Positions 1 through 41,732 of a stretch of DNA of 41,732 bases are shown here, one piece after another; the first letter of the stretch is position 1, and each line of letters opens with the position of its first letter. The DNA lies in the IMG/VR virus record IMGVR_UViG_3300024433_000003, positions 1 to 41,732 of that record; one strand, 5' to 3'. The notes under the pieces are model-generated. The model had not been told where the DNA came from. It searched no databases and saw only the letters and a list, made by a program, of their open reading frames with translations. The stretch is from a virus. The position numbers and the translations under genes are program-made.

Positions 1-127
1 ACCCCAGCCAACGGCATACGCCAGTTCTCTCTGGATGCCAGCACCTTTGCCATTCACCTACAAGACCCACCTAATGCCATCACTTCGCCTGAATACATGA
101 CTATCAGTGCGGATACCACCGATACGT
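1..127. repeat. Terminal redundancy, left copy
   Basis: Bases 1-127 are identical to 41606-41732. A reading frame starting at 41108 crosses this junction without interruption. An exact 127-base overlap is what a k-mer assembler leaves on a circular sequence, so I read it as circularity rather than a biological terminal repeat. Confidence 0.95.
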
Positions 128-489
128 TCTGGGTTACGGTTTTTGATCCGGGGACACCGCCAGCAGCTACATTATGTAGAATTTATGGTTGGACTTATGA
201 TAAAAATGACAATCCACGAGCCAATTGTAAATTTACTGTTTATATAGTAAATACTTATTCTCCTGTTACCAATACCGCCGATAATATCATAACGCCTTTT
301 AGAACCTCTGCATTCTCTAATACGAACGGCTATTATTATATGGATGTTTACCGCTCAGATTCTTTGACTGCCGGTAAGGGAGGAATAGTCAAATATCATT
401 TTAGGCTTGAAGCTCCAGATGGGACATTCACAAGTAGGAAACGTCATTATGAAGTTCCTGATTCAACTACACATAAAATAGTTTGGTAG
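1..489 (+). CDS. Exported fibre/adhesin-like protein, C-terminal part (starts at 41108)
   Basis: In frame from base 1 and ending at the TAG at 487-489. The C-terminal hundred or so residues have the pattern of a carboxypeptidase-regulatory-like beta-sandwich: RIYGWTYDKNDNPRANCKF followed by a Thr/Asn-Gly-Tyr-Tyr turn and a hydrophobic strand. Such domains occur in surface and adhesion proteins. An ATG at 97 is internal and not the start. The gene ends 34 bases before the convergent minus-strand operon ends; the gap is T-rich and holds no convincing hairpin. Confidence 0.85.
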   Translation, partial: TPANGIRQFSLDASTFAIHLQDPPNAITSPEYMTISADTTDTFWVTVFDPGTPPAATLCRIYGWTYDKNDNPRANCKFTVYIVNTYSPVTNTADNIITPFRTSAFSNTNGYYYMDVYRSDSLTAGKGGIVKYHFRLEAPDGTFTSRKRHYEVPDSTTHKIVW

Positions 490-6800: not shown

Positions 6801-6828
6801 CTTTATCACCTCCTCTCCTTTCGGGTTT

Positions 6829-19622: not shown

Positions 19623-19915
19623 ATTTCAAACCCTATGCTGACAAGATAATTGTCAAATCTATTAAAAAAGAGAAATCGGATGGTGGTATCATCCTACCTG
19701 AGACGAAAAGCATGGAGCATTTGGTGCGGGGTGAAGTTGTGGCGGTCTCGGATGGATTTCTTTTAGATGGCAAAGAATGGCCGTTGACCTCTAAGATTGG
19801 CGACATTGTGTGGTTTCAGAAGGGGCTTGGTGTACCGTTTCCATTTGAGGGTGAAGAGTATCAGATATTGCAGGAGGGGACGGTTTTTGGGAAAGAGGTA
19901 AAAGTAAAACTTTAA
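19619..19915 (+). CDS. GroES-like co-chaperonin (98 aa)
   Basis: Cpn10 family: an N-terminal strand (YADKIIVKSIKKEKSDGGII) including the start of the mobile loop (SDGGIILPET), RGEVVAVSDG, then IGDIVWFQKGLGVPF and EGEEYQILQEGTVFG. Length is right for a GroES monomer. It would cap host GroEL and help fold phage proteins, as gp31 of T4 does for its capsid protein. No GroEL is encoded here. It sits between terminase and portal, consistent with a head-assembly role. Confidence 0.88.
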   Translation: MNFKPYADKIIVKSIKKEKSDGGIILPETKSMEHLVRGEVVAVSDGFLLDGKEWPLTSKIGDIVWFQKGLGVPFPFEGEEYQILQEGTVFGKEVKVKL

Positions 19916-27495: not shown

Positions 27496-28146
27496 ATGAA
27501 CACAGCGACTTTATACAAAGATTTAAAGAATCTTTTCTTTCACTTACAGATAGACGATCCACGGCTTCAGGTGGCGACAAAGGCGGGATTCTTAGAGATG
27601 GGTCACTATATCGATCTGCCTGATGCCCAGGCTCATCCAGACGACATTACGGTCGTATCAAGGACACCAAATTATGACGTAACACTTGCAAGTGGTGGTG
27701 ATGTGGATCGAATAACCTCAGCCGTTTTTGTCTCAGGAACCACCAGGCAAATATTAGGTGATTCCTGGACTGAAAGAGAATATCAATATCATTATCGGGG
27801 AATAGCCGGAACGGGAGTGCCTTCTGAGTGTTGTTATTTTAAGGATCAATTATGGCTTTATAAGATTCCGAATTTGTCAGGAACCGTCTACTTGACTTGT
27901 CAGTCTGTTGTGGCCGATTTGACCGATTTTCCCGATAACTACTTTCCGTTGATGGTGGCATTGGTAGCCAAGCATCTGTTCAGGACAAGTTCCGAGCCCG
28001 AAGGAATAGCAATTTATCTTCGAGCCGTTCAGGACACAAAAGATTTAATTAAATCCTTTACGGGACGAATGCACCCCAAGAAAATGGTGATGGAAAAATC
28101 TACTTATCGTTCAAAAAGAATACAGAAATTGAATGCCTTAAATTAA
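27496..28146 (+). CDS. Putative head-tail connector/adaptor protein (216 aa)
   Basis: Follows the modification genes and precedes a second adaptor-like protein. N-terminal helix MNTATLYKDLKNLFFHLQID, central strands, and C-terminal helices FPLMVALVAKHLFRTSSEPE give an adaptor-like layout (helical core with a beta insert). Assignment rests on position and build. Confidence 0.5.
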   Translation: MNTATLYKDLKNLFFHLQIDDPRLQVATKAGFLEMGHYIDLPDAQAHPDDITVVSRTPNYDVTLASGGDVDRITSAVFVSGTTRQILGDSWTEREYQYHYRGIAGTGVPSECCYFKDQLWLYKIPNLSGTVYLTCQSVVADLTDFPDNYFPLMVALVAKHLFRTSSEPEGIAIYLRAVQDTKDLIKSFTGRMHPKKMVMEKSTYRSKRIQKLNALN

Positions 28147-28156: not shown

Positions 28157-28882
28157 ATGAAGAAACTTTTAATTACCATCTTTTTGTTGTTTCTCTTGGT
28201 GGGGTCTGCTGTGGGTGCTGCAACACCACAGGATAAGAATATCTGCACGACCTTGGGTGAGCTTCGGCAGGATGTCAAGAATGAGTTTTTGGTGATGACG
28301 GATGCGCTCTTTCCTGATTCGGTGCTGGATGATTTTATTAACCATGCTTGTCGGGATCTGGCGGGGTATAACATTATCCTCGATGTTGATACTATTGTCT
28401 GGGCGGCTAATACGAAATACTATGCGTTGCCTGTCAACTTCCGTGCTTTTATCGCTATATATCCCGATGCTTATTCTGGAGTAAAGGCGTTTGACCACAT
28501 CCATCCTTCTGCTGTTGGAAAGATAGCGGCGGCCACAGACCTTACCGCTTCAAGATATGTGTGGATTACCGGAAAGAACACAGTGAAAGACACAACGATG
28601 AGGATATGGTTTTACCCCGCCCCCAGTGCAGTAGACACAATGGAATTGATTTATGCGGCAGAAGCAATCAACCTTTCGGATACCTCCGATACAACTAATA
28701 TTCCCTATCATTATGTTCCACTGATCGCCCTTTATGCTACGGGTAAATGTTATGCCAAAGCAGGGAAATACAACAAGGCAAGCTGGTATTTTGCTCTTTA
28801 TGACCAGTGGATTAATAAGAAACTGCTCTTTGAGCAGAAGAGATATGATTACATAATCCTACCCAGGGAGATTAAGAAGTGA
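28157..28882 (+). CDS. Phage adaptor-like protein with an apparent signal peptide (241 aa)
   Basis: Residues 1-21 (MKKLLITIFLLFLLVGSAVG-A) form a textbook signal peptide. The rest matches the adaptor layout of short-tailed phages: DALFPDSVLDDFINHACRDL, YYALPVNFRAFIAIYP, MRIWFYPAPSAVDTMELIYA, and a C-terminal helix IPYHYVPLIALYATGKCYAK. It would join portal and tail. A secretion signal on such a protein is odd; alternatives are a cleaved or non-exported hydrophobic N-terminus. Confidence 0.65.
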   Translation: MKKLLITIFLLFLLVGSAVGAATPQDKNICTTLGELRQDVKNEFLVMTDALFPDSVLDDFINHACRDLAGYNIILDVDTIVWAANTKYYALPVNFRAFIAIYPDAYSGVKAFDHIHPSAVGKIAAATDLTASRYVWITGKNTVKDTTMRIWFYPAPSAVDTMELIYAAEAINLSDTSDTTNIPYHYVPLIALYATGKCYAKAGKYNKASWYFALYDQWINKKLLFEQKRYDYIILPREIKK

Positions 28883-31239
28883 AGAGACTTTTTCTTTTAA
28901 TAATCTTAATGCCGACCGTTCTTTGGGCACAGGAAAATTTTAATCTGCCCATAGTGCCACCGGAGGAGTCGGTCTCTGTGTCAAAGCCGGATAGTCCCTT
29001 TGTTTTGCCCTTGGTTTTACCCACAGTGCCTACACAGGACATGGCATCTTTGACAAGACCCGAAGTGCCTTCCTTTTCTCCCTTGTCTTTACCGCAGGCG
29101 GAATCTCAATCCCTTGAGGTTGGCACACATCAATTTGGGGGACTTAATCTGTTTATGCCAACTAATAAAGTGCCCAAAGAGCAGGCTATTGTTTTGAACA
29201 ATTTCCTACCAAAAGGATTTGTGTCACTTGAAAAACGGGTGGGGATTCAAAAAGCGAATCCAAATGATTCGACCCTGTTAAGTGGGGTATATGGTATGGC
29301 AATGGGTGGTGCCACACCACAGATAATTGCCTCTACGGCTGAATCGTTATGCTACGCTCTGCTAAGTGCTGACCTAAATTTTGTCGGTATTGATACTACG
29401 TCTGCTATCTTAACTTATTTTGCCTCTACACCCTTTGGGGTGATCGTGATGAATGGCACGGACTCGACAAGAATCTGGATTGATAGGGATACTATCGAGG
29501 CTTTGGGTGTGATAGATACAGGGACATTCGATGCTGACAGCACGGTGGGGGGAGATACTTCTTGGGTGGCGGATTCATCGGCGGCATGGACGGCGGATGA
29601 ATGGATCGGTTATTGGCTAAAATGCAGTAGCAGTTATTTGGAGATCATAGACAATGGTAATAATTGGTTTCATGTAAAGTTGTGTGGTGATACTTGTGAC
29701 GCAGAAACCACCTTTCTACTTTTAGCCCGTCCCGATTCGGTGGGATCGACTTTGGGCTATCCCATCGGAAAAGCGGGAGCTTATTATGGGGATAGGTTTT
29801 TCGTAAACTCGGAATGGCTGAATAACAGAATTTATTTTTCTAAAGTGCACGATCCCGATGATATTCCACCTGAAAACTTTATCAATCTGGACATGGGCAG
29901 GCATGATGAAATTGTGGCGATGCGTGTGTTCAATGGATATCTGATAGTCTTTGGAAAGTATTCGATTTATGGAATCAATGCCTCCTGTGTAGCTACACCG
30001 ATTACAAAGAGTTTAGGCTGTGTTAGTCCCAATGCCATAGCTATGGGTGATAATTATATCTATTTTCCCGCACAGGACGGGATATATCGGTTCAGTTCAA
30101 ACATATACGGGAGCATGTCTTATAAGCCTGAAAAAATCTCCTATGAGATAGACGAATACTTAAAAAACATTGATCCCTCTTATTTGGATTACTGTGCGGG
30201 GGTTTGTTATAACAATCAATATTGGTTCAGCTATGATCGAGACAAGACGCTGGTTTTTGACGAAGGGACAAAGCAGTGGTATCCCTTGGGGTTTGGATTT
30301 GGCAATGCCCTTGTTACTCCGCCCGAATATTCAAGGTATGAGTTGATATTGCCAAATGCCGATGGCACTACAACCGATTGGGATGAAACGGGTGCTGGTT
30401 CAGATCACTATGCCCAGATTGACGAGACACACACAGGCCCCGATGATGCCAATTATGTTTCTACTGCAGTATCGAGTGAAAACGAGCAGTTTGCATTTGC
30501 GAATATTGTAGATATGCCTACGGGTGCAAGTATAAAGTCGGTAATTCTATATTTACGTGCAAGGGGGTCATTATTTGAACAGAGAATAATCGTGGGTATT
30601 AAATCTGGATCAATTTATCCTGTGGATACACTCAACACTTCAATTTGGTGGACGAATTATGTTATCTCTATGAATACTAATCCCGCAGACAATCAGGCAT
30701 GGGAGAGATCTGATATTGATGCTCTGGAGATTAATTTACGGTCATTAACTTCTGCCACCAAGTCGGTTTATGTTAGCCAACTTGAAGCGGGGGCTTTATT
30801 TCAAGGAGATGCCTCATCTAATTTACTTTTTTCTGGTCTCGACAAACCCTTTCTCTATCAATACGGGGGTGTGTTTGATGACGACACCAGCAGTGCGTTT
30901 GGCGAGGTTTACGGTGAGCCGGTCATAGCCACCATGCAATCGGGTTTCTTTGACAACGATTTGCCCGTAGATGATAAATTGCTTCGCCAGTTTTATCTTC
31001 AGACGGAATCCGATTCAGGAGACATTTGGGTTTATTACTATACGGACTACGGAACCACACCATCCGATTCGGACTTGGTTCATCTTGGTGGCAAAAGAAC
31101 TTCCTGGTGGATGTTAGGGGAGAAGGTTAAGGGAAAGAACTTCTCCATAGAGATCGAAAACAAATCGAATGTCGATAGCCTTATAATTAAGGGCTGGTCG
31201 GCAATACTAAATAACTTAGGACACAGGGGAGGCGAATAA
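28879..31239 (+). CDS. Tail nozzle-like beta-propeller protein (786 aa)
   Basis: N-terminal signal-like segment MKRLFLLIILMPTVLWAQ, a Pro-rich linker, then the nozzle/tail-tube pattern: FGGLNLFMPTNKVPKEQAIV with LNNFLPKGFVSLEKRVG, IYFSKVHDPDDIPPENFI, EIVAMRVFNGYLIVFGKYSI, GCVSPNAIAMGDNYIYFPAQ and YWFSYDRDKTLVFDEG. Repeated strands suggest a propeller. Residues about 510-650 look like an inserted beta domain. It would form the tail tube or nozzle through which DNA leaves. Overlaps the previous gene by four bases. Confidence 0.75.
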   Translation: MKRLFLLIILMPTVLWAQENFNLPIVPPEESVSVSKPDSPFVLPLVLPTVPTQDMASLTRPEVPSFSPLSLPQAESQSLEVGTHQFGGLNLFMPTNKVPKEQAIVLNNFLPKGFVSLEKRVGIQKANPNDSTLLSGVYGMAMGGATPQIIASTAESLCYALLSADLNFVGIDTTSAILTYFASTPFGVIVMNGTDSTRIWIDRDTIEALGVIDTGTFDADSTVGGDTSWVADSSAAWTADEWIGYWLKCSSSYLEIIDNGNNWFHVKLCGDTCDAETTFLLLARPDSVGSTLGYPIGKAGAYYGDRFFVNSEWLNNRIYFSKVHDPDDIPPENFINLDMGRHDEIVAMRVFNGYLIVFGKYSIYGINASCVATPITKSLGCVSPNAIAMGDNYIYFPAQDGIYRFSSNIYGSMSYKPEKISYEIDEYLKNIDPSYLDYCAGVCYNNQYWFSYDRDKTLVFDEGTKQWYPLGFGFGNALVTPPEYSRYELILPNADGTTTDWDETGAGSDHYAQIDETHTGPDDANYVSTAVSSENEQFAFANIVDMPTGASIKSVILYLRARGSLFEQRIIVGIKSGSIYPVDTLNTSIWWTNYVISMNTNPADNQAWERSDIDALEINLRSLTSATKSVYVSQLEAGALFQGDASSNLLFSGLDKPFLYQYGGVFDDDTSSAFGEVYGEPVIATMQSGFFDNDLPVDDKLLRQFYLQTESDSGDIWVYYYTDYGTTPSDSDLVHLGGKRTSWWMLGEKVKGKNFSIEIENKSNVDSLIIKGWSAILNNLGHRGGE

Positions 31240-31241
31240 AG

Positions 31242-31796
31242 ATGGCTTTTAATTATCCTAATATACCACGAAGGGATGGATATAGAGGTGGACAGACTAA
31301 TCCATTTACTACTGCTGAAGGTTTAATGGGGAATCGTAGACTTCCCGCAAGCTCAGGAACGACTCCGTATGGTTTTGGTGGAGGCGCAGGTTTTGGTGGA
31401 GGCGCAGGTTATGGTGGGGATGTCGGTGCTGGTGCGGGACAGGGATACTCTTCCGAGGAATGGTTTCCTGATCTTTATCGAAATTTGTTTCAACGCATGG
31501 GAGCAGAGGAAACATCCGCTTTCGATCAGCTTGTCGGACAGTTTGGCGGGGCATTGGGATCACAGATGAGCAGGACAAACGTTCCTGTCGCCGGAGGTTA
31601 TGATATGCTTGCCAATAGATTTATGGCACCTATGCGAACACAGATGCAAATGCCCTGGTCGGAAAGGGTGAGAACTACCCTACAGATGGCACAGCAGTTT
31701 GCACCCATGTTTGAGGGTCATCTTGGATCGGATAAGTATTGGGAGTCGATTATGAATAAATTTATGAAGGAATTGTTTGGGGGAGGAGGGAAATAG
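31242..31796 (+). CDS. Gly-rich virion-module protein (184 aa)
   Basis: Disordered Gly/Ala-rich N-terminal half with a tandem repeat (GFGGGAGFGGGAGYGG from an 18-bp DNA repeat near 31373-31420), then a helical C-terminal half (SERVRTTLQMAQQFAPMFEG). Position suggests an internal or ejected virion protein. Confidence 0.6.
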   Translation: MAFNYPNIPRRDGYRGGQTNPFTTAEGLMGNRRLPASSGTTPYGFGGGAGFGGGAGYGGDVGAGAGQGYSSEEWFPDLYRNLFQRMGAEETSAFDQLVGQFGGALGSQMSRTNVPVAGGYDMLANRFMAPMRTQMQMPWSERVRTTLQMAQQFAPMFEGHLGSDKYWESIMNKFMKELFGGGGK

Positions 31797-31797
31797 A

Positions 31798-32694
31798 ATG
31801 AATGGATCGAATTATGGTTATGGTGAAGGGGGGGGGCAAGGTCAAGATTGGTGGGATGAATGGTATGAGAAGATGTTGAATACGCTTTATGGGAGATTTG
31901 AGAGCCCACAAAGACCAATCATTAAAATTCCCGACATAGATCCCTTTGAATATGTGCCAGGTGAATATTCTCAAGATTTATGGAAAATGTGGCAAGAAAA
32001 GGGAGGAACGACACCAAGTCCTTGGGATTTGACTGACTGGATGGGACGGTTAGGTGAATATGGTCCACCGGGAAATCCGCCCCTTGCACCAGAGAGGGGA
32101 ATGCCGGATGTAGGCCTACAAAAGCGGTTAGAAGAAGCACAAAGGGCATACGGGGCAGGAGGGAGAGGTTCCTATTCCTTTGGGGCGGGTTGGTCTCAAG
32201 ACCGGATTGGCAACTTGGTTCAATCACTTCAGGGTCAAATTGATGCGGCTTATCGGGGAAAACAGTCAGAAACCCAACAATATTTAGCTGAATTGCAGGG
32301 ATATGGGCAAGAATTAGCTGGACATCAGGCTGGTTATGGTCAGCTTGCAAATGAAATGGCACAGGCTTTTCAGAGGAAGGGAATGGGAATGCAGGGATTG
32401 CAACAGTTAATGAATCTTGCTACACAGGCGGGAGCGACTACTCAACGATCAACCGTGCAGGCTGAGTTGGGTTCGGCTGGACTTCAACAACAGGAATGGC
32501 AAAGTGCCTTGGCTGGATTACAGGGATTCAGGGGGCAAGACATTGATCTACTGATGAAAAAGTTAGAAATGGAAATGATGATTGCACAGGCAAGGGCAGC
32601 GGCACAGGGACAGGATGATGGTTTCTGGGATATGTTAAGTGCAATTGCTCCTTATGCTTTAATGTTTTTAGGAGGACCACCCGTTGTGGTATAG
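31798..32694 (+). CDS. Gln-rich helical virion-module protein (298 aa)
   Basis: ATG at 31798 after GGGGGAGGAGGG. Pro/Gly-rich N-terminus, long Gln/Ala-rich helices (GQIDAAYRGKQSETQQYLAE, QWQSALAGLQGFRG-like segments) and a hydrophobic C-terminus (MLSAIAPYALMFLGGPPVVV) that could insert in a membrane. This build fits proteins injected with the DNA. Confidence 0.6.
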   Translation: MNGSNYGYGEGGGQGQDWWDEWYEKMLNTLYGRFESPQRPIIKIPDIDPFEYVPGEYSQDLWKMWQEKGGTTPSPWDLTDWMGRLGEYGPPGNPPLAPERGMPDVGLQKRLEEAQRAYGAGGRGSYSFGAGWSQDRIGNLVQSLQGQIDAAYRGKQSETQQYLAELQGYGQELAGHQAGYGQLANEMAQAFQRKGMGMQGLQQLMNLATQAGATTQRSTVQAELGSAGLQQQEWQSALAGLQGFRGQDIDLLMKKLEMEMMIAQARAAAQGQDDGFWDMLSAIAPYALMFLGGPPVVV

Positions 32695-32703
32695 GAGGAA
32701 AAA

Positions 32704-33747
32704 ATGCCGCTAGGAACTAATTATGATTGGAGTGGTATGATGGGTGGTTATGAAGATGCCCTCAGCCAACTGTATCGTGGTCAACAAACCGATTTTTTGG
32801 ATTTTCTTCGCTCGTTTGCCCCACAACTGGGGCAGTTTCTTCAACAGAGAAAACTTGAGAAATTAGTCCAACAGCAGAGAATCGGTGGTGCTTTAGAAAC
32901 TGGTGAAGGTGTGGTTTTGCCTCAAGATATAAACATGATGGGGCAGGCTGCCCCTGAAATGATGCCCTGGGAACAGCTTCGCTCTTTGGTTGGAACAGAC
33001 CCCTCACCGTTTCCTGCTGGACCGATGAGTGTTTCCAAGGAGGCTCAAAGAGATTTGCCTCCGCTTTTTGCAAGATCACCTTATAATGAAATAATGAGAC
33101 AATTGGATATGGAGTATAAGATTGCTCGGCTTAGACCAAAGGCAAAAGAAGAAAAAGAATTAACTCCCAGCCAAAAAATGAATCAAATGAAATTAGACCT
33201 TTTGCAGAAATTAAAAAAAGGTGATGAATGGACTCCAGGAGACATAGATGTAGCGGCACGTTTTTGGCCGGATAAGATTTCAACAAAGTCGGGACTAACT
33301 CCCAGCCAACAGATTAGTCAAATGAAATTAGACCTTTTTCAAAAAACAAAAACAGGAGAAGCATGGACTGAAGATGAAGAAGAATTAGCTAAGGTTCTGG
33401 GTGTGACTAAAGAAGAAAGGGCGGGTCGCACTTTATCTCAAATATTACCTCCAGACTATAGTATGGTCGGGGATTTTGTGCCTCCAGGTGCTGAATTCAA
33501 TATGTATAGAATCAGGGCAACGGAGCGTCTTGGTGCTAAGACGGGCAACCAAGCCACAATGGAGGAGGCAAGAAAAGCCCGGATAATGAAGGGTTATCCT
33601 CCATTAGAAGATGAAAGAGATATGCAAAAGGCGATACGGGATGGCGACTTTGGTAAAACCAAAGAGGGGATATTAGCAAACTTAAAAACGATGGGCTATC
33701 CAGATGATTATATCGAATTTATTATGGCGGAGTTGGGTATTAAATAG
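32704..33747 (+). CDS. Virion-module protein with internal repeats (347 aa)
   Basis: ATG at 32704 after TAGGAGGA. Two consecutive repeats of about 45 residues begin LTPSQKMNQMKLDLLQK and LTPSQQISQMKLDLFQK; their DNA is nearly identical, so the duplication is recent. N-terminal helices and a C-terminal DDYIEFIMAELGIK. Probably an internal virion protein; no family recognised. Ends four bases before the convergent membrane gene. Confidence 0.6.
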   Translation: MPLGTNYDWSGMMGGYEDALSQLYRGQQTDFLDFLRSFAPQLGQFLQQRKLEKLVQQQRIGGALETGEGVVLPQDINMMGQAAPEMMPWEQLRSLVGTDPSPFPAGPMSVSKEAQRDLPPLFARSPYNEIMRQLDMEYKIARLRPKAKEEKELTPSQKMNQMKLDLLQKLKKGDEWTPGDIDVAARFWPDKISTKSGLTPSQQISQMKLDLFQKTKTGEAWTEDEEELAKVLGVTKEERAGRTLSQILPPDYSMVGDFVPPGAEFNMYRIRATERLGAKTGNQATMEEARKARIMKGYPPLEDERDMQKAIRDGDFGKTKEGILANLKTMGYPDDYIEFIMAELGIK

Positions 33748-33751
33748 ATTG

Positions 33752-34054
33752 TTACGTTTTGTTGATTTTTGTTAAAAGCCAGATTGCACCGCAGATTGTA
33801 GCGGACATCCAAAGCAGTGCGGGAATTAAGAGGAGAAGAAAAGAAGGATTAAGGTAATAATCAAACAATGCGAGGGGTATAGCGGTTATGAAAAACCAGA
33901 GGAAAATTATCAATATAAATAAAGGAATACCCAACGACTTCATTTGTGGATGTCTTTCATAAAATTTAGCAGAAAACATGGATGACCCGAATGCAACTAT
34001 AAAACCTAAGATGACAATTCCACCGAGAACATAAAGAATGATTGTGCCTATCAT
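33752..34054 (-). CDS. Opposite-strand multi-span membrane protein (100 aa)
   Basis: Three or four transmembrane segments: IGTIILYVLGGIVILGFIVA, LGIPLFILIIFLWFFITAIP, LNPSFLLLLIPALLWMSATI. It is the only minus-strand gene in the late arm, flanked by a convergent gene and a divergent one, the position of a separately expressed accessory (moron) gene. TATATT occurs 15 bases upstream of the ATG without a clear -35. Superinfection exclusion is a reasonable guess; a holin is less likely given orientation. Confidence 0.65.
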   Translation of the reverse strand: MIGTIILYVLGGIVILGFIVAFGSSMFSAKFYERHPQMKSLGIPLFILIIFLWFFITAIPLALFDYYLNPSFLLLLIPALLWMSATICGAIWLLTKINKT

Positions 34055-34090
34055 ACAAAAGATACGTTAAATATAGTTTCTTAATTTGTT

Positions 34091-37000
34091 ATGCCCCTTA
34101 CAAAAGAAGAATTAGAAGAGATACTTAGAAGAAAACGCCAGGAACGCTTGGAATTGGGTTTACCTGTTACGGATACAACGGGGATTAGTCTACCTATTAG
34201 TTCCAGACAAAGTATTAAAAAATTAATTGAAGAGGAGTATACTGGACTTAGCGATGAAGAATTGGCTTCGCTTGTTCATGGCGTAGCCAGTGGTATGACT
34301 TTTGGTGGCTCTAAAAAACTATTGGATCTGATATTCGGTAAAGAGGCGGAGCGTCGACGGAAAGAATTGGCAATTACTCCAGAAGTGGAGCAGATGGGAA
34401 AAGCCGGTGATTTTGCTGGACAGCTTTTTCCATTAATGAGAGGTATACGAACCGCTGGTTGGCTGACTAAGACATTGCCGGGTGTGCGAAAACTTCCCCA
34501 ACTTGCTCGTTCCACACTTTCTAATATTATGGCTGGTGCAGGAGTAGGGGCGGTGCAACAAAAGACTGAAGAAGAATCACGATTGGCGAAGATGGGTAAA
34601 GAAGCGGCTATCTTTGGTGGGGTAACCGGGGTTTTGGGCGGTCTTCAGCCAACTATGAGATGGTTGGCAGATAAGAGGGTCTATGAGGTTATGACACCGG
34701 AAGGAAAAAAGATCATTGTTAAGACTTTTAAAAAAGCTAAAGAGCTTGTAGCACGTGGGTTTCCTTTGACTCATCCCGAAGTAACGGGCAGTGCACGAGG
34801 CATGTCTGAAATAGTAGAGAAAACCCCCAAGCTGGCGGAGGCTGCCCAATGGTTTGTGCAGCGGAAAGTTCCATCGGGTTTCAGGGAGCGTATGAGGGGG
34901 TTTGAAGGTGAGAAGGGTATGCTTGTTGAAGAGGCAGGGGAGACTGGAGCTAAACTTGCCGCCTTGTCTTTACCTGAGCAGAGAGTAGCAAAGGACATTA
35001 TCTCTGGTGGGGTGATTACTCCAGCCACAGAACATTTGCGGGAGGTTACTAAAATCCCGATTAAGCGATTTGGGGAACATGGCAGGTTTATTCCTAAGGC
35101 CTTTGAAGAAGTAGTGGGTGAGCCGAGTCAACCTTGGCAGAAAGCCATGAATAGACTTTACCATGAGAGATTGACCCATGCCGAGGTGAAAACATTGAAC
35201 GATCAACTTGATCCGGCTATTGGAAAATCGCTTGCGAATCAACTGGCTAAATTAGTAAAACGGGGGATCCTCACAACAAAAAGTAAATTTCGCTCCCCCT
35301 ATCCTGGCTGGACAGCTCAAAAACAAAATCTTCAAGAGAAAGTCGATAAAATAAAGACACGCCTCAAACAGCATTATCATGTGGGTGGAGGCATGAAATA
35401 TGGAGGCGTGCGTTATTTCCCCCGCATGTTTCTTACCAAAGAGCAAGATAAGAATCTTTTGAAATGGGGGCTTTTTAGATCGGTTAGATTCAGGGGTAAA
35501 CGAAGCTACCTGAAGGCCAGAGAGGACATCCCAGATCACATCCTCAAGAATATGGGTGAGATCATGTATGCGTCCTATCCTGTGCAGAAGCGAATGTCCC
35601 AGATTGGAGGTGATCTGGCTACGTGGAACCTTCTGGACGACATTGCCAGAAATCCAGAGTGGTCAACTATTTCCGAAGCCATAGCTAAAGAGAAAGGATT
35701 TGTCCAAATGACCAAGACTCCGACCTGGGGATTAGGACCTTTGAGGAAAAGCTGGGTGCACCCCGAAGTAGCCAACGAACTAAATCAAATGTTTACAATC
35801 CCTGGACAATGGGCGGCAACATATAAAAAATGGATTGGGCGTTGGAAATTTGGAAAGGTCATCCCTCGACCGGCAAGCTGGGGTAGAAATATATTCGCCA
35901 ATGTCTTCTTTGTCGATTTGGCGGGCGTGCAACCTTGGCGTTTTGAGAGTGCGAAACTTTTTGAAAAAGCCTTTGTTGATTACATTCATAAGGGACCCAT
36001 ACACAAAGAACTTGTCAAACGGGGATTGTTGGGGACTGAATTTATACCCGCAGAAGCCAAGCTACTTTTTGAGACCGTCAGGCAATCAAAGGGCAATATG
36101 TTTGATCTCATTGGTCAGACTTCCGAGAAGTGGGTTAAAGGAGGAATAACTGGTCTCGGTAGGTTCTTCACTGCACAGGATCAGCTATTCAAACAGTGGA
36201 TCGTGATGGATCAATTGGCGAAGGGTGCCACGATGGACAAGGCGGTAAGTGCGGCTTTCAAGTGGATGCCTAACTATGCTGAGGTACCCGGAGTTACGAA
36301 ATTTCTCAGATCGTTTCCTTTGCCTTTTTTCAGCTTTACCTCCGAAGCGACCAGAATCATGGGAATTGCCGCCAGAGAAAGACCTTTGACTTTTGCCAAA
36401 TGGCTGAGTATGCCTAAAATGATAACCGAGTTTTCCAAAAGAAAACTGGATTTCTCAGAGGAGGAATGGAAAGAAGTGCAGAGAAACATGCCAACTTATA
36501 TGAAGGGGGGATTGCATGTGCTTCTGCCATTGGGAAACAAAGAGAAGTTTAGAATGTGGGATTTGACCTATAACATGCCCTGGGGTGATGCAATAGAGTA
36601 TGCTGGTGATCCGTGGCGAATAATATCGAATCCCTTGGTTAGCACTGTGGCGGCGATAAAGACTGGTATTGATCCGTTTACTGAGCGTCCCATTATCACA
36701 CATGCCAAACCGACAGTGCTTGAGTCGATGCAAGATTGGGCAAATAATCTTACTCAACAAGCTCTTCCCGCCTGGACGCCGGGCATTCCTGGAACAGACA
36801 TTAAGGGGGGGTATGACTGGAAGGCATGGGTGGAAACCATACAAAAGACCCCACGTTTAAAAGCTTCTGGTGGGATCAAAACCAGAACCTATCCTGAGAC
36901 CATAGGTAGCACCCTCTTAGGAATTAAGACAAGAGAAATGGAGACTAAGGAATTAAAAATTCGACACTTGCAGAGGGTTGGTAGAGAAATTAACGAGTTA

Positions 37001-37201
37001 ACGAGAAATTATAAGCGAGTGTCAAAGGAAAAATTGGCTTGGAAAAAAGCGTTTGGTCATAGCCAAGCAGAAGAGAAATTTAGACCGGAACTTGACAGAA
37101 TTATGGCGAAAATCAAGGATACTCTAAAGGATTTAAAACCAGAAGAACGCAAGACATTTCAAGAACGATTTAAGGATATTTTAACTGGGATAGGATTTTA
37201 A
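34091..37201 (+). CDS. Large internal virion/ejection protein (1036 aa)
   Basis: The longest gene. Gly-rich amphipathic segments near residues 140-185 (NIMAGAGVGAVQQ, AAIFGGVTGVLGGLQPTMRW) could contact membranes. The centre has KVIPRPASWGRNIFANVFFV and later FLRSFPLPFFSFTSEATRIM, patterns I associate with large phage proteins packaged in the head and injected with DNA. The C-terminus is a long charged coiled coil. No enzymatic motif was recognised, including no lytic transglycosylase Glu motif. Confidence 0.65.
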   Translation: MPLTKEELEEILRRKRQERLELGLPVTDTTGISLPISSRQSIKKLIEEEYTGLSDEELASLVHGVASGMTFGGSKKLLDLIFGKEAERRRKELAITPEVEQMGKAGDFAGQLFPLMRGIRTAGWLTKTLPGVRKLPQLARSTLSNIMAGAGVGAVQQKTEEESRLAKMGKEAAIFGGVTGVLGGLQPTMRWLADKRVYEVMTPEGKKIIVKTFKKAKELVARGFPLTHPEVTGSARGMSEIVEKTPKLAEAAQWFVQRKVPSGFRERMRGFEGEKGMLVEEAGETGAKLAALSLPEQRVAKDIISGGVITPATEHLREVTKIPIKRFGEHGRFIPKAFEEVVGEPSQPWQKAMNRLYHERLTHAEVKTLNDQLDPAIGKSLANQLAKLVKRGILTTKSKFRSPYPGWTAQKQNLQEKVDKIKTRLKQHYHVGGGMKYGGVRYFPRMFLTKEQDKNLLKWGLFRSVRFRGKRSYLKAREDIPDHILKNMGEIMYASYPVQKRMSQIGGDLATWNLLDDIARNPEWSTISEAIAKEKGFVQMTKTPTWGLGPLRKSWVHPEVANELNQMFTIPGQWAATYKKWIGRWKFGKVIPRPASWGRNIFANVFFVDLAGVQPWRFESAKLFEKAFVDYIHKGPIHKELVKRGLLGTEFIPAEAKLLFETVRQSKGNMFDLIGQTSEKWVKGGITGLGRFFTAQDQLFKQWIVMDQLAKGATMDKAVSAAFKWMPNYAEVPGVTKFLRSFPLPFFSFTSEATRIMGIAARERPLTFAKWLSMPKMITEFSKRKLDFSEEEWKEVQRNMPTYMKGGLHVLLPLGNKEKFRMWDLTYNMPWGDAIEYAGDPWRIISNPLVSTVAAIKTGIDPFTERPIITHAKPTVLESMQDWANNLTQQALPAWTPGIPGTDIKGGYDWKAWVETIQKTPRLKASGGIKTRTYPETIGSTLLGIKTREMETKELKIRHLQRVGREINELTRNYKRVSKEKLAWKKAFGHSQAEEKFRPELDRIMAKIKDTLKDLKPEERKTFQERFKDILTGIGF

Positions 37202-37202
37202 A

Positions 37203-37256
37203 ATGACCGAACCGATCACTTTCACACTGGAGGAATTTTTGGCTTATGACTCCTGA
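37203..37256 (+). CDS. Possible 17-aa coupling peptide
   Basis: ATG at 37203 two bases after the previous stop; MTEPITFTLEEFLAYDS then TGA, overlapping the next start. It carries GGAGG for the next gene. Probably a coupling leader if translated. Confidence 0.3.
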   Translation: MTEPITFTLEEFLAYDS

Positions 37257-37446
37257 AATTCTTGAGGGTATAAGATGGCTATTAGTTCTCGTTTTGGTTT
37301 ACTTTTTTGTGCCGTTAAAAAAAAAGGCGGACAAAAACAGGGAGGATATTGTTAAGATAGAGACTCACTATGAGCACATCAGTAAAGATTTGCAAGAGAT
37401 CAAGAATCACCTAAAAGAGTTGAATGGAAGAGTTAGCAAAAAATGA
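37246..37446 (+). CDS. Membrane-anchored coiled-coil protein, lysis candidate (66 aa)
   Basis: One transmembrane helix (IRWLLVLVLVYFFVPL, residues 9-24) followed by a charged coiled coil (IVKIETHYEHISKDLQEIKN). Such proteins are common in phage lysis or tail-tip regions (XhlA-like or i-spanin-like). With the two-span protein at 38171 it may form the lysis module. ATGA overlap with the next gene. Confidence 0.55.
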   Translation: MTPEILEGIRWLLVLVLVYFFVPLKKKADKNREDIVKIETHYEHISKDLQEIKNHLKELNGRVSKK

Positions 37447-37613
37447 CTTTAACCTGCACGGATCATGTAATAATACAAACTTTGGATTTGGTGAAACTGA
37501 GTTTAATCCCTTTCATTGCTTGGCTTTTTCGGAATCGAATAAAAAGGTTTTTTAAGGGTAATGGTGAAAAGAAGAAATGCAAAAACTTTAAACCTAATGA
37601 TTTGGGGTTATAA
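37443..37613 (+). CDS. Small hypothetical protein (56 aa)
   Basis: ATG at 37443 in ATGA overlap, TAA overlapping the next ATG. Hydrophobic middle (LDLVKLSLIPFIAWLF) followed by a basic tail RNRIKRFFKGNGEKKKC: probably one membrane-associated helix. Function unknown. Confidence 0.55.
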   Translation: MTLTCTDHVIIQTLDLVKLSLIPFIAWLFRNRIKRFFKGNGEKKKCKNFKPNDLGL

Positions 37614-37816
37614 TGTTCAAGGGTCTTGTTGACAACACAGACAAACAGATCACGCTTGCTCGGGAAGCCATGCTCACCATTCAGAGGGCTAAGGGTTCTG
37701 GGGAAATAGATGAAAAGACGGCTAATATTCTTATGGCTACACAGATGATTATGATGCAAACAAGTATATCGAACTCTCAGATTTTGAAGGAGGTGAAAGA
37801 CGATGGCAAATCCTGA
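37613..37816 (+). CDS. Small helical protein (67 aa)
   Basis: Coupled by TAATG. NTDKQITLAREAMLTIQRAK and a Met-rich helix ANILMATQMIMMQTSISNSQ. No family recognised; part of the small-gene cluster between ejection and fibre genes. Confidence 0.6.
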   Translation: MFKGLVDNTDKQITLAREAMLTIQRAKGSGEIDEKTANILMATQMIMMQTSISNSQILKEVKDDGKS

Positions 37817-38015
37817 GTTTATAGTCGCGGAGAAGGCTTATAGGGGATTAAATGTTGACCAAAAATTAGTTGTAGGAGAGGCGATTAAATCCCTGTTTGA
37901 TGGTTTTAGGGTAACGGTTAGTGCCAAGAAATTTGGGCACTCAAGAAAGTTCAAGGATGAATGTGACTTGGTTTCAAGTGAACACACCCTCAAAAAACGG
38001 AAAAAGTTAAAATAA
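37803..38015 (+). CDS. Basic hypothetical protein (70 aa)
   Basis: Overlaps the previous gene by 14 bases and has GGAGGTG upstream. Contains KLVVGEAIKSLFDGFRVTVS and a Lys-rich C-terminus. No family recognised. Confidence 0.55.
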   Translation: MANPEFIVAEKAYRGLNVDQKLVVGEAIKSLFDGFRVTVSAKKFGHSRKFKDECDLVSSEHTLKKRKKLK

Positions 38016-38030
38016 GGGAGGTGAAAAAGA

Positions 38031-38159
38031 GTGGCAGCAGGAACAAGACGCATAGGCAAACCGAGAACGGATGCAGAGCGGAGGATAAGACACAAAAGAA
38101 TTCATGGAACGGATAAATTACCACCACGAGGAACTGGGTTAGGAAAAAAGAAAAAATAA
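38031..38159 (+). CDS. Conserved small basic phage protein (42 aa)
   Basis: GTG at 38031 after AAGGGAGGTG. RRIGKPRTDAERRIRHKRIH and LPPRGTGLGKKKK match a familiar tiny phage protein (RIGKPRT.AERR.RH...GT..LPPRGTG) found among structural genes. Function unknown; strongly basic. Confidence 0.7.
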   Translation: MAAGTRRIGKPRTDAERRIRHKRIHGTDKLPPRGTGLGKKKK

Positions 38160-38170
38160 GGAGGTGACGG

Positions 38171-38374
38171 ATGAAACTTAAAGCCCCTAATCATATTCTG
38201 AGCTTACGAAGTTCAACCTCAATAACACTGGTGAGTATTCTCGCTCTCCTGCTCACCATAGCTCAAGCATTACCTGAAAGCAAATGGACGCTTTTAGCCA
38301 TTGCTATAATTGGTGCAGTTTTAATTTTCCTGAATTCACCGGACAGGAAAAAGAAAGGAGGCAAAAGTGCCTAA
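38171..38374 (+). CDS. Two-span membrane protein, holin candidate (67 aa)
   Basis: Two transmembrane helices (SITLVSILALLLTIAQAL and TLLAIAIIGAVLIFL) joined by a short loop and ended by a basic tail DRKKKGGKS. Size, topology and tail are those of class II holins. No endolysin is recognised nearby, so the lysis role is inferred. GGAGGTG precedes the ATG. Confidence 0.6.
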   Translation: MKLKAPNHILSLRSSTSITLVSILALLLTIAQALPESKWTLLAIAIIGAVLIFLNSPDRKKKGGKSA

Positions 38375-38558
38375 AATGATTAAGATGGAGATTGATCTGG
38401 ATGAGTTGAGAAAAGAAGAAATCCAAGACCAGTTGGCTGAGTTGTTTGACAAAGTCTTTGTCTTTAAGGGTCCGGCTGGCATACTGATTGAGACCGTAGA
38501 CAAAGTATTTTTTAAAACACTGGTCAAATCATTGGTTGGACAGATTGACAAACAATAA
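38367..38558 (+). CDS. Small acidic protein (63 aa)
   Basis: GTG at 38367 with AAGGAGG upstream, overlapping the holin candidate by eight bases. MPKMIKMEIDLDELRKEEIQ then hydrophobic KVFFKTLVKSLVGQI. No family recognised. Confidence 0.55.
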   Translation: MPKMIKMEIDLDELRKEEIQDQLAELFDKVFVFKGPAGILIETVDKVFFKTLVKSLVGQIDKQ

Positions 38559-38593
38559 CCACCCCGTCTTTGATCTGAGCCTTCAACGGCGGG

Positions 38594-38621
38594 TATATTA
38601 ACGGTGGCTTAGATTTGTCAA
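38594..38621 (-). promoter_or_regulatory. Leftward promoter antisense to late genes
   Basis: TTGACA (38621-38616) with AATATA at 16 bases (or TAATAT at 15). The -35 region TTGACAAATCTAAG resembles that of the promoter at 15234. It faces the holin candidate and upstream genes in antisense; no minus-strand gene follows. Confidence 0.45.
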
Positions 38622-38624
38622 GTA

Positions 38625-38650
38625 ACAAATTTACAGAATTGTAAATTTGT
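38625..38650. promoter_or_regulatory. Perfect 11-bp inverted repeat (operator candidate)
   Basis: ACAAATTTACA and TGTAAATTTGT separated by GAAT. It lies between back-to-back -35 boxes at 38616-38621 and 38662-38667, the usual position of a regulator site. Confidence 0.6.
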
Positions 38651-38661
38651 AAATTTCCCTC

Positions 38662-38689
38662 TTGACAAGGGCAGGTTCTCGTTAGATGA
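38662..38689 (+). promoter_or_regulatory. Candidate promoter for the fibre block
   Basis: TTGACA at 38662-38667; possible -10 boxes TAGATG (15-base spacing) or AGATGA (16) are weak, so an activator may be needed. Next gene starts at 38714. Confidence 0.4.
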
Positions 38690-38713
38690 GGCTATGCTCT
38701 GAAAGAAAGGATA

Positions 38714-38809
38714 ATGAGAAAACACGCTTTACACCTTATGAAAAGGGTTCTACTTTTAGCCGGTATCATCCTTGCGGTGGCGGTGGTAATAGCGGTTTTT
38801 AATAAGTGA
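38714..38809 (+). CDS. Tiny membrane protein (31 aa)
   Basis: ATG at 38714 after AAAGGAT. A basic start (MRKHALHLMKR) and one transmembrane helix VLLLAGIILAVAVVIAVF. First gene after the late control region. Function unknown. Confidence 0.5.
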   Translation: MRKHALHLMKRVLLLAGIILAVAVVIAVFNK

Positions 38810-38832
38810 AGGGTTGTGTCCTGAAAGGAAAA

Positions 38833-39552
38833 ATGAAAAAGCTATCAGTTATCGGTTTGCAGTTGGCGGTGCTCCTGCTCGTGATTTGCGGGCAGGCTTG
38901 GGGGGATACTAAGAAGATAACGGGCACCACCAACATAGAGGATGCCATGATTATGAGTGCCAATGCAGAGAAAAACTATGGTGGTTATGATTATCTATAT
39001 AGTGGTGTTGCTTATGCGACTCTTATTCGAGTAAAGAATGTTGCTACTGAATTGGGTGCTAATGCTACCATTTCGGCTTGTGTGTGTAGTGTTTATTGTA
39101 ATGCACACACAAGCATTCAGGATGTTTCTGCATATCGGGTTTTCAAGCCCTGGGTTGAGGGTGACGAGAGCGGAGTAGATGATGATGATGGGGATGTCAC
39201 TTGGTCTGACTGGGCTTCGGATGCTTATGAGTGGACGACGGCGGGATGTAATAGTGCCGATGATGAAGGAGTTGACAATAGCGGTGATGGCACTGGTGCT
39301 GATAGAAAAGCCACAACCGAAGATACAGAGTCGAATGTGGGTAGTGGGAATTGGTATGGTTTTGATATATCAGCTTCACTTGCCCAGGGATGGTATGACG
39401 GGACTATCAATGAAGAAGGTATAATATTATATAGTGGTGCAGATTACCAGAGATATTCTTCGACGGAATATACTTCCAACCAGCCTTTCTGGGTGTTCAC
39501 CTATACTACCGGGGCACCACCGGAAGCGGGTCAAGTAATCATTGTTCATTAG
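38833..39552 (+). CDS. Exported DNRLRE-like fibre/adhesin protein (239 aa)
   Basis: ATG at 38833 after AAAGGA gives a clean signal peptide (MKKLSVIGLQLAVLLLVICG then QAWG). The body has the DNRLRE pattern: ITGTTNIEDAMIMSANAEKN-YGG, ATLIRVKNVATELGANATIS, VSAYRVFKPWVEGD, TWSDWASDAYEW, and FDISASLAQGWYDGTINEEG with ILYSG. DNRLRE domains are surface and carbohydrate-associated modules of bacterial exported proteins. Here it probably forms part of the fibre or a secreted adhesin. An upstream GTG at 38806 is coupled but spoils the signal peptide. Confidence 0.72.
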   Translation: MKKLSVIGLQLAVLLLVICGQAWGDTKKITGTTNIEDAMIMSANAEKNYGGYDYLYSGVAYATLIRVKNVATELGANATISACVCSVYCNAHTSIQDVSAYRVFKPWVEGDESGVDDDDGDVTWSDWASDAYEWTTAGCNSADDEGVDNSGDGTGADRKATTEDTESNVGSGNWYGFDISASLAQGWYDGTINEEGIILYSGADYQRYSSTEYTSNQPFWVFTYTTGAPPEAGQVIIVH

Positions 39553-39564
39553 GGGGATTTGTTA

Positions 39565-41097
39565 ATGAAAAGAAATAGATGGCGTTCCATAAAATTGGTT
39601 TTTGTTTTAGCTTTTATCATCATTTTATGCTGGGTAATAGATAATATGAATTGCGATCCGGCTTATGGACAGTTTGAAAGTCCAGCTACGGGTGCGGGAT
39701 TGTCCGATCAGGCGGTTAAGGGAGATCACGTAGATTCGACCTCTGAGGATTTTGTATTCAATGATGCGTTCAGGATTAAATCATCGACAGACGACAGTAT
39801 GTTTATGACCAAAAAATATATTGACGATATGGCTGGGGGTCTGGTCGCTCAGTCGGTTAAGGGGGATCATGTGGATTCCACTTCGGAAGATTTTGTCTTT
39901 AACGATGCCTTTAGGATCACATCGGCACAAGCGGAAAGCATTTTTATAACGAAAAATCATATTGAGAAAACAACCCACGATTCCTTAAATGCCAACTGGG
40001 CAACATGGCTTGATGGAGATGCGGCGGAGTCGGAAATACACGATACCACCGCTACCCATTGGGATGAGTGGGTGCATATAAGTGGTGACGAAATGACGGG
40101 AGCACTTTATTTGCTTAACAGTTCAGATGTTGATGCCGATCCACCGTTTCAGGGTTATAGACGAAAACGTGATGGAAACCCAACCGATGATGTATCAAGT
40201 GGTGACTATTTGGGATCTGTGTATTTTTTCGGTTATCACACGGATGGATACGATGTGGCGGCTGAGATTCGTGTTACTGTTGATGGAACGTGTGGCAATA
40301 CTGATATGCCGGGGAGAATAGAACTTCTTACTTCACCTGACGCTTCGGCTACTCCCGTAAAAAGAATGGCAATAAAAGAAAATGGCGACATATTTATGGG
40401 TGACGGAGCTTGGACTAATTATATCAAGACCACTGCCGCAGGGGTTTTAACTATGGAGGGCACAGCTACGATAGACGGGATAACTGCGGGGAATATAGCA
40501 AGTGAAGCTGAAATACACGATACCACATGGGCACACTTGGATGATACAAGTGCCGTTCTATGGACTGCCATACATGATACTGCGTGGATGTTGCATGATG
40601 CTATTGGGGATACTTTGTGGGCACATCTCGATGATACTTCTGCTGTCTTATGGACGGCTATTCACGATACAGCTTGGATGTTACGTGACGATATTCATGA
40701 TACGATGTATGCCAACGCCCCAGGATATAGCACCAACAGCGAGATACACGATTCACTTTATGCTGACACCTTAACCAAATCCTTTGTGATCCAAGACCCT
40801 GCCACCACCCATGACTTTCCTTTCTGGATGACTCCCAATGCAATCACACTGATAGCTTGTAATGGGGTTTGTATTAGTGGCACTAACGTTGTTGGCTGTC
40901 TGATGGAATACGATAACGATGCCGCCAATCCGGTGGTTTGTAATAGCTCCGACTGGACGTTCACCACTGGCGAAGAGAGAACCACATCCCTCTCCAATGC
41001 TTCGATTGATGCCGGAGATTATCTTGGATGGAAAACTACGTCGGTAAGTGGTGATGTAGATTTTGTTACTATAACCATTGAATACACCCGACAATAA
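39565..41097 (+). CDS. Tail-fibre-like repeat protein with N-terminal membrane/signal segment (510 aa)
   Basis: ATG at 39565. A basic start (MKRNRWRS) and hydrophobic segment KLVFVLAFIIILCWVI suggest a signal or anchor. Two exact protein repeats follow: VKGDHVDSTSEDFVFNDAFR twice (about residues 51-115) and WAHLDDTSAVLWTAIHDTAW twice (about 325-375), plus further IHDT units. Between them is a beta-rich region (GRIELLTSPDASATPVKRMA). The C-terminal beta domain resembles fibre heads. Likely receptor-binding or fibre shaft; no enzymatic motif. Confidence 0.65.
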   Translation: MKRNRWRSIKLVFVLAFIIILCWVIDNMNCDPAYGQFESPATGAGLSDQAVKGDHVDSTSEDFVFNDAFRIKSSTDDSMFMTKKYIDDMAGGLVAQSVKGDHVDSTSEDFVFNDAFRITSAQAESIFITKNHIEKTTHDSLNANWATWLDGDAAESEIHDTTATHWDEWVHISGDEMTGALYLLNSSDVDADPPFQGYRRKRDGNPTDDVSSGDYLGSVYFFGYHTDGYDVAAEIRVTVDGTCGNTDMPGRIELLTSPDASATPVKRMAIKENGDIFMGDGAWTNYIKTTAAGVLTMEGTATIDGITAGNIASEAEIHDTTWAHLDDTSAVLWTAIHDTAWMLHDAIGDTLWAHLDDTSAVLWTAIHDTAWMLRDDIHDTMYANAPGYSTNSEIHDSLYADTLTKSFVIQDPATTHDFPFWMTPNAITLIACNGVCISGTNVVGCLMEYDNDAANPVVCNSSDWTFTTGEERTTSLSNASIDAGDYLGWKTTSVSGDVDFVTITIEYTRQ

Positions 41098-41107
41098 GGG
41101 AACTAAA

Positions 41108-41732
41108 ATGAAAAGACTCTTTCTGTTATCATGTGTGATTTGTGTTCTGTATGGTTTGTCTTGGGCTAACAATTTCGGATCGTCCGTAGACGGTGAACAG
41201 GCGGCGGTGACTTTCACGCATACGGCTGATTGTGACAGTGCCCGTGTCGAATTTGGTTATGATGGGGACGGTGGTGCAGATACGTTGAATTTCTATGCTG
41301 AAATAAGAGTGCTTCCCTGTTTCTCCGGTGACGGCAAACTTCTAATGGGAGAGGGTCTTGAATTAGACAGCATCGGAACGCACGTAGTCAAGATAACCTA
41401 TTTTGAGGATGATGGGGACGCTACGGCAGATGGCTATGTTACGGGTATTTGGATACATGAAAATCCAGTTTCCAGTCGTTGCAGTGGTTCGGGAACATAT
41501 ACGGTTACTCTTTATCTTTTAGACGATTCGGACTCTACGGCAGTTTCTGGTGTGACAATCAATATCAATGATTCCACCAGTGGAGACTGGCAGGCGGGAG
41601 ATGACACCCCAGCCAACGGCATACGCCAGTTCTCTCTGGATGCCAGCACCTTTGCCATTCACCTACAAGACCCACCTAATGCCATCACTTCGCCTGAATA
41701 CATGACTATCAGTGCGGATACCACCGATACGT
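41108..41732 (+). CDS. Exported fibre/adhesin-like protein, N-terminal part (continues at 1-489)
   Basis: Start ATG at 41108. The frame runs to the contig end and continues at base 1, giving 328 residues in total. Residues 1-20 form a signal peptide (MKR, a hydrophobic stretch, then LSWA before Asn-Asn). The remainder is acidic and Ser/Thr/Asp rich with beta-sandwich character. It is the last gene of the tail-fibre block, 10 bases after the preceding gene. A cell- or virion-surface binding role is inference from position and composition. The signal peptide is unexpected for a protein assembled into a cytoplasmic virion. Confidence 0.85.
   Translation, partial: MKRLFLLSCVICVLYGLSWANNFGSSVDGEQAAVTFTHTADCDSARVEFGYDGDGGADTLNFYAEIRVLPCFSGDGKLLMGEGLELDSIGTHVVKITYFEDDGDATADGYVTGIWIHENPVSSRCSGSGTYTVTLYLLDDSDSTAVSGVTININDSTSGDWQAGDDTPANGIRQFSLDASTFAIHLQDPPNAITSPEYMTISADTTDT
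41606..41732. repeat. Terminal redundancy, right copy
   Basis: Exact second copy of bases 1-127. It should be removed before circularising; the unique genome is then 41605 bp. Confidence 0.95.

What the first reader, a model, noticed from the sequence alone, without database searches (positions are those of the whole stretch)
28157..41250. Several virion-type proteins carry apparent signal peptides
The adaptor-like protein (28157), nozzle-like protein (28879), DNRLRE-like protein (38833), fibre-like protein (39565) and last fibre protein (41108) all begin with Lys/Arg, a hydrophobic core and a small-residue cleavage site. Tailed phages normally assemble in the cytoplasm, so exported tail components would be very unusual. 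Possible explanations are membrane-associated tail assembly, dual-use surface proteins, or cleaved targeting to the inner membrane.
Basis: partly seen in the sequence, partly recalled or inferred. Interest (0 to 1): 0.7.

Follow-up and report, generated by a model that had tools for sequence, protein, structure and literature searches.

The report
Exported-type leaders on podovirus tail proteins
In this uncultivated short-tailed phage, and in relatives with unrelated heads, every identified outer tail part carries the signal bacteria use to send proteins out of the cytoplasm while the head parts do not, which suggests that the tail may be made in a different compartment from the DNA-filled head.

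Summary
The five genes (28157, 28879, 38833, 39565, 41108) start, after good ribosome-binding sites, with a positive n-region and a hydrophobic core; four have a clear small-X-small cleavage site, and 39565 is ambiguous (long polar c-region). Two are bona fide tail proteins: 28157 is a podophage tail adaptor (Pfam SU10_adaptor; best folds are SU10 and other podophage adaptors), 28879 a podophage nozzle (best folds Pa223, P22 gp10, VP1, SU10). The leaders are kept in homologues: adaptor 6/6 lineages, nozzle 6/6, DNRLRE-like 3/3, fibre-1 3/3, fibre-2 2/2, including contig G017, whose terminase, portal and capsid show no similarity to the window's. Head, internal-virion and first-adaptor proteins never have one (0/34), so the boundary always falls between adaptor 1 and adaptor 2. 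Control phage genes of 150 aa or more have such N-termini in 4/743 cases; MS-verified virion proteins of Cellulophaga phage phi14:2 in 0/17. Best reading: Sec/signal-peptidase-I-type export of the distal tail, joined to cytoplasmic heads when the inner membrane opens at lysis. Cleavage, location and joining are inferred, not shown. Membrane-anchored assembly is the main rival. The window is a complete circular genome (41,605 bp). No precedent found in the papers searched.

The parts
27496..28146 (+). Adaptor 1 (head-side adaptor/head completion candidate), no leader
   Evidence: SU10_adaptor weak (24.2 bits, cut-off 27); no leader in 6 lineages incl. G017
28157..28882 (+). Adaptor 2, podophage tail adaptor with N-terminal signal peptide
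   Evidence: PF24175 E 2.8e-15, domain begins at residue 31; Foldseek best hits are SU10, cyanophage A4, B2, KHP30, VP1 tail proteins; leader in 6/6 lineages
28157..28219 (+). Leader of adaptor 2 (21 aa, ...GSAVGA|ATPQ)
   Evidence: window vs L002: 6 nonsynonymous changes in the first 26 codons, mostly hydrophobic swaps in the core
28879..31239 (+). Nozzle protein with N-terminal signal peptide
   Evidence: PHROG 511/578; Foldseek best hits Pa223 tail 3.3e-11, P22 gp10, VP1, SU10, crAss001 muzzle, Sf6 gp8 (low-confidence model); leader in 6/6 lineages
28879..28929 (+). Leader of nozzle (17 aa, ...VLWA|QENF)
   Evidence: +1 = Q in 5 of 6 lineages
31242..37201 (+). Putative internal/ejected virion proteins (31242, 31798, 32704, 34091), no leaders
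   Evidence: position; no signal peptide
38833..39552 (+). DNRLRE/CBM96-like fibre-module protein with leader (38833-38904, ...GQAWG|DTKK)
   Evidence: homologues G016 fibA (2e-70) and G015 fibC (7e-63) also have leaders
39565..41097 (+). Fibre 1 with N-terminal hydrophobic leader, signal peptide or anchor (39565-39669, ...DPAYG|QFES)
   Evidence: PHROG tail fiber protein 6.5e-14; homologues G016 fib1 (4e-242) and G017 fibA (8e-56) keep the leader
41108..41732 (+). Fibre 2, first part, with leader 41108-41167 (...GLSWA|NNFG); continues across the circular junction
   Evidence: homologue G016 fib2 (1e-51) has a leader ending TWA|QAYG
1..489 (+). Fibre 2, C-terminal part (bases 1-127 repeat the last 127 bases of the window)
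37246..37446 (+). Holin-like protein (possible opener of the inner membrane)
   Evidence: phrog_10340 holin/anti-holin 7.8e-6

Best explanation
The outer tail of this podovirus group (second adaptor, nozzle and fibres) is made as Sec-type precursors. The leaders send these proteins across the inner membrane, where signal peptidase I probably removes them, while procapsid, DNA packaging, internal proteins and the head-side adaptor 1 stay in the cytoplasm. The most likely way to a complete virion is two-compartment assembly: heads sealed by adaptor 1 meet exported tails (adaptor 2-nozzle-fibres) when the holin opens the inner membrane, and join then. Shown: the leaders, their conservation in type, the sharp boundary, the identity of adaptor and nozzle. 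Inferred: export, cleavage, periplasmic location, joining at lysis.
For: Leaders with n-, h- and c-regions at the SD-supported starts. Adaptor identity by Pfam and fold, with the adaptor domain beginning just after the leader; nozzle identity by PHROG and fold. Leaders in all homologues found in this group: adaptor 6/6, nozzle 6/6, DNRLRE-like 3/3, fib1 3/3, fib2 2/2, with leader sequences diverging while the type is kept. Extra adaptor-like genes of G001 have leaders too. Pattern kept in G017, whose terminase, portal and capsid do not match the window's. Complete separation of distal (28/28 hydrophobic N-termini) from head/internal/adaptor-1 proteins (0/34 signal peptides; highest N-terminal hydrophobicity 1.54 against lowest 2.5). 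Base rate 4/743. No strong second transmembrane segment in the mature parts. Several cleavage sites have Q at +1, as exported proteins of Bacteroidota and Ignavibacterium do (PMC5837995).
Against: Established tailed-phage biology puts tail assembly in the cytoplasm. No N-terminus has been measured; a cleavage site by rule alone is weak evidence (13 of 22 hydrophobic control N-termini have one). fib1 and G001 adaptor2c have charged c-regions and may stay anchored. How separately stored heads and tails meet is unobserved. The host is unknown.
Confidence: 0.5

Rival explanations
1. Membrane-anchored assembly: the leaders are kept for a time as N-terminal anchors, so that adaptor 2, nozzle and fibres are laid on the inner membrane and heads dock there; cleavage is late or absent. 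A variant keeps the hydrophobic N-termini in the virion for membrane insertion at entry.
For: fib1 and its homologues, and G001 adaptor2c, have long hydrophobic segments with charged residues before the possible site. Hydrophobic N-termini with a site are common enough that cleavage is unproven.
Against: Most leaders are short (15-24 aa) with small-X-small ends; leaders sit on proteins of very different place and likely copy number (adaptor, nozzle, fibres), which is hard to fit with a membrane-entry role for each. A signal peptide still puts the body outside, so docking with a cytoplasmic head meets the same barrier.
Confidence: 0.25
2. The proteins are exported for a second job, such as masking receptors against superinfection or acting on the cell surface, and the virion uses a minor non-exported pool.
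For: Fibre-like proteins with single leaders also occur in unrelated phage contigs (L016, L065, L078, L110). Porphyromonas gingivalis phages encode Q-rule signal-peptide proteins of unknown function (PMC10367356).
Against: Adaptor 2 and nozzle are single-copy with no leaderless duplicate seen in the window; an adaptor ring has no evident use at the surface; no conserved internal start that would give a leaderless form.
Confidence: 0.12
3. Internal translation starts give leaderless cytoplasmic forms, so the leader is used only for part of the product.
For: Window nozzle has a GTG at codon 34 behind GGAGGA.
Against: Not conserved in G003 or G012; adaptor 2 has no ribosome-site-backed start between the leader and the adaptor domain that is shared by the lineages.
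Confidence: 0.04
4. Artefact: misassigned starts or chance hydrophobic N-termini.
For: No experimental starts.
Against: SD sites at the leader starts, conservation across divergent homologues, base rate of 4/743.
Confidence: 0.02

Closest known systems
SU10 (Kuravirus) tail: portal, adaptor, nozzle, needle and fibres (PMC9509320, abstract)
   Same: Adaptor is the closest family by Pfam and by fold; nozzle fold also matched; similar gene order
   Different: My caller finds no signal peptide on SU10 structural proteins, only on the putative holin; I know of no second adaptor like adaptor 1 in SU10
P22/Sf6/T7-type nozzle proteins (gp10, gp8, gp12)
   Same: Nozzle fold
   Different: Known ones join DNA-filled heads in the cytoplasm (established knowledge); no leader of this kind is known to me
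Filamentous phages (pIII, pVIII with signal sequences)
   Same: Virion proteins made as Sec precursors
   Different: Filamentous phages are extruded through the membrane and have no tailed capsid (general knowledge; PMC4823517 seen, abstract only)
Porphyromonas gingivalis phages with Q-rule signal peptides (PMC10367356)
   Same: Phage proteins with host-type signal peptides exposing N-terminal Gln
   Different: There the Q-rule proteins are of unknown function and read as host-modifying, not as adaptor, nozzle and fibres
Manatee Spring podovirus-like record MW202497 (L030)
   Same: Nozzle homologue (HMM E 7.7e-18)
   Different: Its nozzle has no leader

Membership tests
Podophage tail adaptor (SU10_adaptor, PF24175): 28157 | Profile score above curated cut-off | tested here: met
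   57.7 bits against 27, residues 31-219
Podophage tail adaptor (SU10_adaptor, PF24175): 28157 | Adaptor fold | tested here: met
   Low-confidence model (pLDDT 48), but the 11 best Foldseek hits are all phage tail structures, the best SU10 with probability 0.99
Podophage tail adaptor (SU10_adaptor, PF24175): 28157 | Dodecameric ring on the portal in the virion | not testable with these tools
   Needs cryo-EM
Podophage nozzle: 28879 | Nozzle fold | tested here: met
   Seven best hits are podophage nozzles or the crAss001 muzzle, 3.3e-11 to Pa223; model confidence (pLDDT 39) and TM-scores are low, so moderate
Sec/signal peptidase I substrates | Positive n-region, hydrophobic h-region, small residues at -3/-1 | tested here: met
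   Four of the five window leaders and 25 of 28 in the group by rule; fib1 not
Sec/signal peptidase I substrates | Cleavage and export observed | not testable with these tools
   Needs mature N-termini or reporter fusions
Lipoproteins (signal peptidase II) | Lipobox with Cys at +1 | tested here: not met
   No Cys at +1 of any predicted site
Tat substrates | Twin-arginine S/T-R-R-x-F-L-K motif | tested here: not met
   No RR in any n-region (by inspection)
Bacteroidetes Q-rule substrates | Gln at +1 in most leaders (mean 71% in Bacteroidetes) | tested here: inconclusive
   About 11-12 of 28 by eye, nozzle 5 of 6 (PMC5837995)

The most novel reading that the evidence does not exclude
A tailed phage with split-compartment morphogenesis: heads mature in the cytoplasm, tails are secreted by the host Sec system and mature outside the inner membrane, and the two halves join at or after inner-membrane permeabilisation.
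Probability: 0.4. Interest if true: 0.92.

Novelty: new variant of a known kind. Interest (0 to 1): 0.77.

Why it matters
Tail assembly of tailed phages is taken to be cytoplasmic. A group in which every identified distal tail protein, but no head protein, carries an export leader would break that rule, give a new use of the Sec pathway by dsDNA phages, and make the order and place of head-tail joining directly testable. It also warns annotators that signal peptides on phage proteins need not mean lysis or moron functions.

Tried and rejected
Wrong starts and chance: rejected by SD sites, conservation and base rate. Lipoprotein or Tat leaders: no motif. Leaderless forms by internal start: not conserved. 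Cultured relatives: searches with adaptor, nozzle, portal, capsid and a fibre in 50,697 phage records gave no hit or weak partial hits only. AlphaFold models were poor (pLDDT 48 and 39) because few homologues exist, so only the consistent ranking of fold hits is used. Literature: no report of leaders on adaptor/nozzle proteins was seen in eight searches of the open-access library on phages, leaders and tails; most subscription papers are not held there.

Full report
What the window is. The window is an IMG/VR record. Its first 127 bases repeat its last 127 exactly, so it is most simply a complete circular assembly of 41,605 bp, and the last gene (41108) runs across the junction to give a 328-aa protein. 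The right half is a podovirus structural module: TerL 18058, GroES 19619, portal 19957, scaffold-like 22388, MCP 23277, glycosyltransferase-like genes, adaptor 1 27496, adaptor 2 28157, nozzle 28879, four putative internal proteins 31242-37201, small membrane proteins including a holin-like one (37246), then DNRLRE-like 38833, fibre 1 39565 and fibre 2 41108. The identity of the internal proteins rests on position only.

The observation. All five leaders exist at starts with Shine-Dalgarno-like sites. A rule-based caller (n-region charge, 10-residue hydrophobic core, A/G/S at -1 and a small or aliphatic residue at -3) accepts four of five; fibre 1 fails because its c-region carries charges. 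SignalP could not be run.

These are tail proteins. 28157 scores 57.7 bits against PF24175 SU10_adaptor, with the domain beginning at residue 31, about ten residues past the leader. Although its AlphaFold model is poor, the eleven best Foldseek hits are phage tail structures, first the SU10 tail, and a profile search of PDB sequences also puts the SU10 adaptor first (E 0.12). For 28879, PHROG hits are internal virion protein and head closure Hc3, and the seven best fold hits are podophage nozzles or the crAss001 muzzle. Fibre 1 matches PHROG tail fibres.

Conservation. Relatives were found in viral contigs: L002 (nozzle 59% in the best segment), G001/G002 (TerL 91%), G003 (TerL 56%), G012 (nozzle 37%) and, through the fibres, G015, G016 and G017. 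The adaptor 2 alignment is down to 36-42% identity, yet every member keeps a leader of the same type with a different sequence. The window and L002 differ at 10 of the first 26 codons, 6 of them nonsynonymous, mostly swaps among hydrophobic residues. G001 has two further adaptor-like genes after adaptor 2, each with a leader or anchor, followed by a nozzle-position gene (MRGCKLFILVGFLILCVFVLWVNA|QVEK). In G017 the terminase, portal and capsid give no match to the window's, but adaptor 2 (6.6e-11), nozzle (4.8e-8) and fibre 1 (8.4e-56) do, and all have leaders. DNRLRE-like homologues in G016 and G015 and the fibre 2 homologue in G016 have leaders as well.

The boundary. In the eight genomes, 28 of 28 distal proteins have a strongly hydrophobic N-terminus (12-residue mean of at least 2.5) and 25 pass the signal-peptide rule; 0 of 34 head, packaging, internal and adaptor 1 proteins pass, and none exceeds 1.54 (Fisher 2e-14, not corrected for relatedness). 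Some of the fibres of G015-G017 were recognised as such partly by their leaders, so the homology-defined subset (adaptor 2 6/6, nozzle 6/6 with the G001 nozzle by position, DNRLRE-like 3/3, fib1 3/3, fib2 2/2) is the cleaner figure. Base rate in other phage contigs: 10 of 1,026 genes of 150 aa or more pass the rule, among them known or likely lysis proteins of N4 and crAss001; with a stricter start filter 4 of 743 have such an N-terminus. Control genomes SU10, N4, crAss001 and phi14:2 show the rule only on holin, lysis or hypothetical proteins, and the 17 MS-verified structural proteins of phi14:2 that I read, from a Bacteroidota host, have none.

What cannot be claimed. The rule finds a possible cleavage site in 13 of 22 hydrophobic control N-termini, so the advantage of the tail set (25/28) is modest (Fisher 0.02). 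Cleavage is supported by the short leaders, by A or G at -1 of the chosen sites and by Q at +1 in five of six nozzles, as in exported proteins of Bacteroidetes and Ignavibacterium album (PMC5837995), but it is not shown. The Q fraction over all leaders (about 40%, by eye) is below the Bacteroidetes mean of 71%, so the host stays open.

Mechanism. Export would place adaptor 2, nozzle and fibres beyond the inner membrane while the head, its internal proteins and adaptor 1 remain inside. The leaders stop exactly at the adaptor 1/adaptor 2 junction, which is the natural joint between a sealed head and a tail. The simplest working model is that both halves are stored apart and join when the holin opens the inner membrane. 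In vitro joining of separately made heads and tails is known for other tailed phages (own knowledge). Membrane-anchored assembly is the main rival; a secondary surface role alone does not explain single-copy adaptor and nozzle genes.

Relation to the known. By sequence and fold the adaptor and nozzle are members of known podophage families. The leaders on them are, as far as the open-access library searched here shows, not described; P. gingivalis phages encode Q-rule leader proteins of unknown function (PMC10367356), and a survey of phage DGR target proteins found no signal peptides (PMC6199706).

Noticed in passing
window 1-127 and 41606-41732: Exact 127-bp direct terminal repeat: the record is most simply a circular, complete genome of 41,605 bp, and the last fibre gene spans the junction (328 aa).
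   Followed up: yes
L031 300-1982 (G001): Two further adaptor-like genes in tandem after adaptor 2, each with a leader or anchor: possibly a longer tail made of stacked rings.
   Followed up: partly
L127 7480-7956 and L129 5798-6271: Phage-encoded 157-158 aa proteins with signal peptides that look like small outer-membrane barrels, near the fibre and lysis genes of G016 and G017.
   Followed up: no
window 37246-38558 and left arm: A holin-like gene is present but no recognisable endolysin was found among the proteins scanned.
   Followed up: partly
window 4429-4992 and 5042-5728 (-): Two adjacent partial-length DNA methyltransferase genes matching the same family (phrog_67), which look like a tandem duplication.
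   Followed up: no
window 19619-19915: Phage-encoded GroES next to the terminase, kept in relatives.
   Followed up: no
L016 11798, L065 14138, L078 15720, L110 4886: Unrelated phage contigs each with one fibre- or decoration-like protein that carries a signal peptide.
   Followed up: partly
window 6384-6809 (-): 141-aa protein of unknown family with a strong signal peptide in the early region.
   Followed up: no
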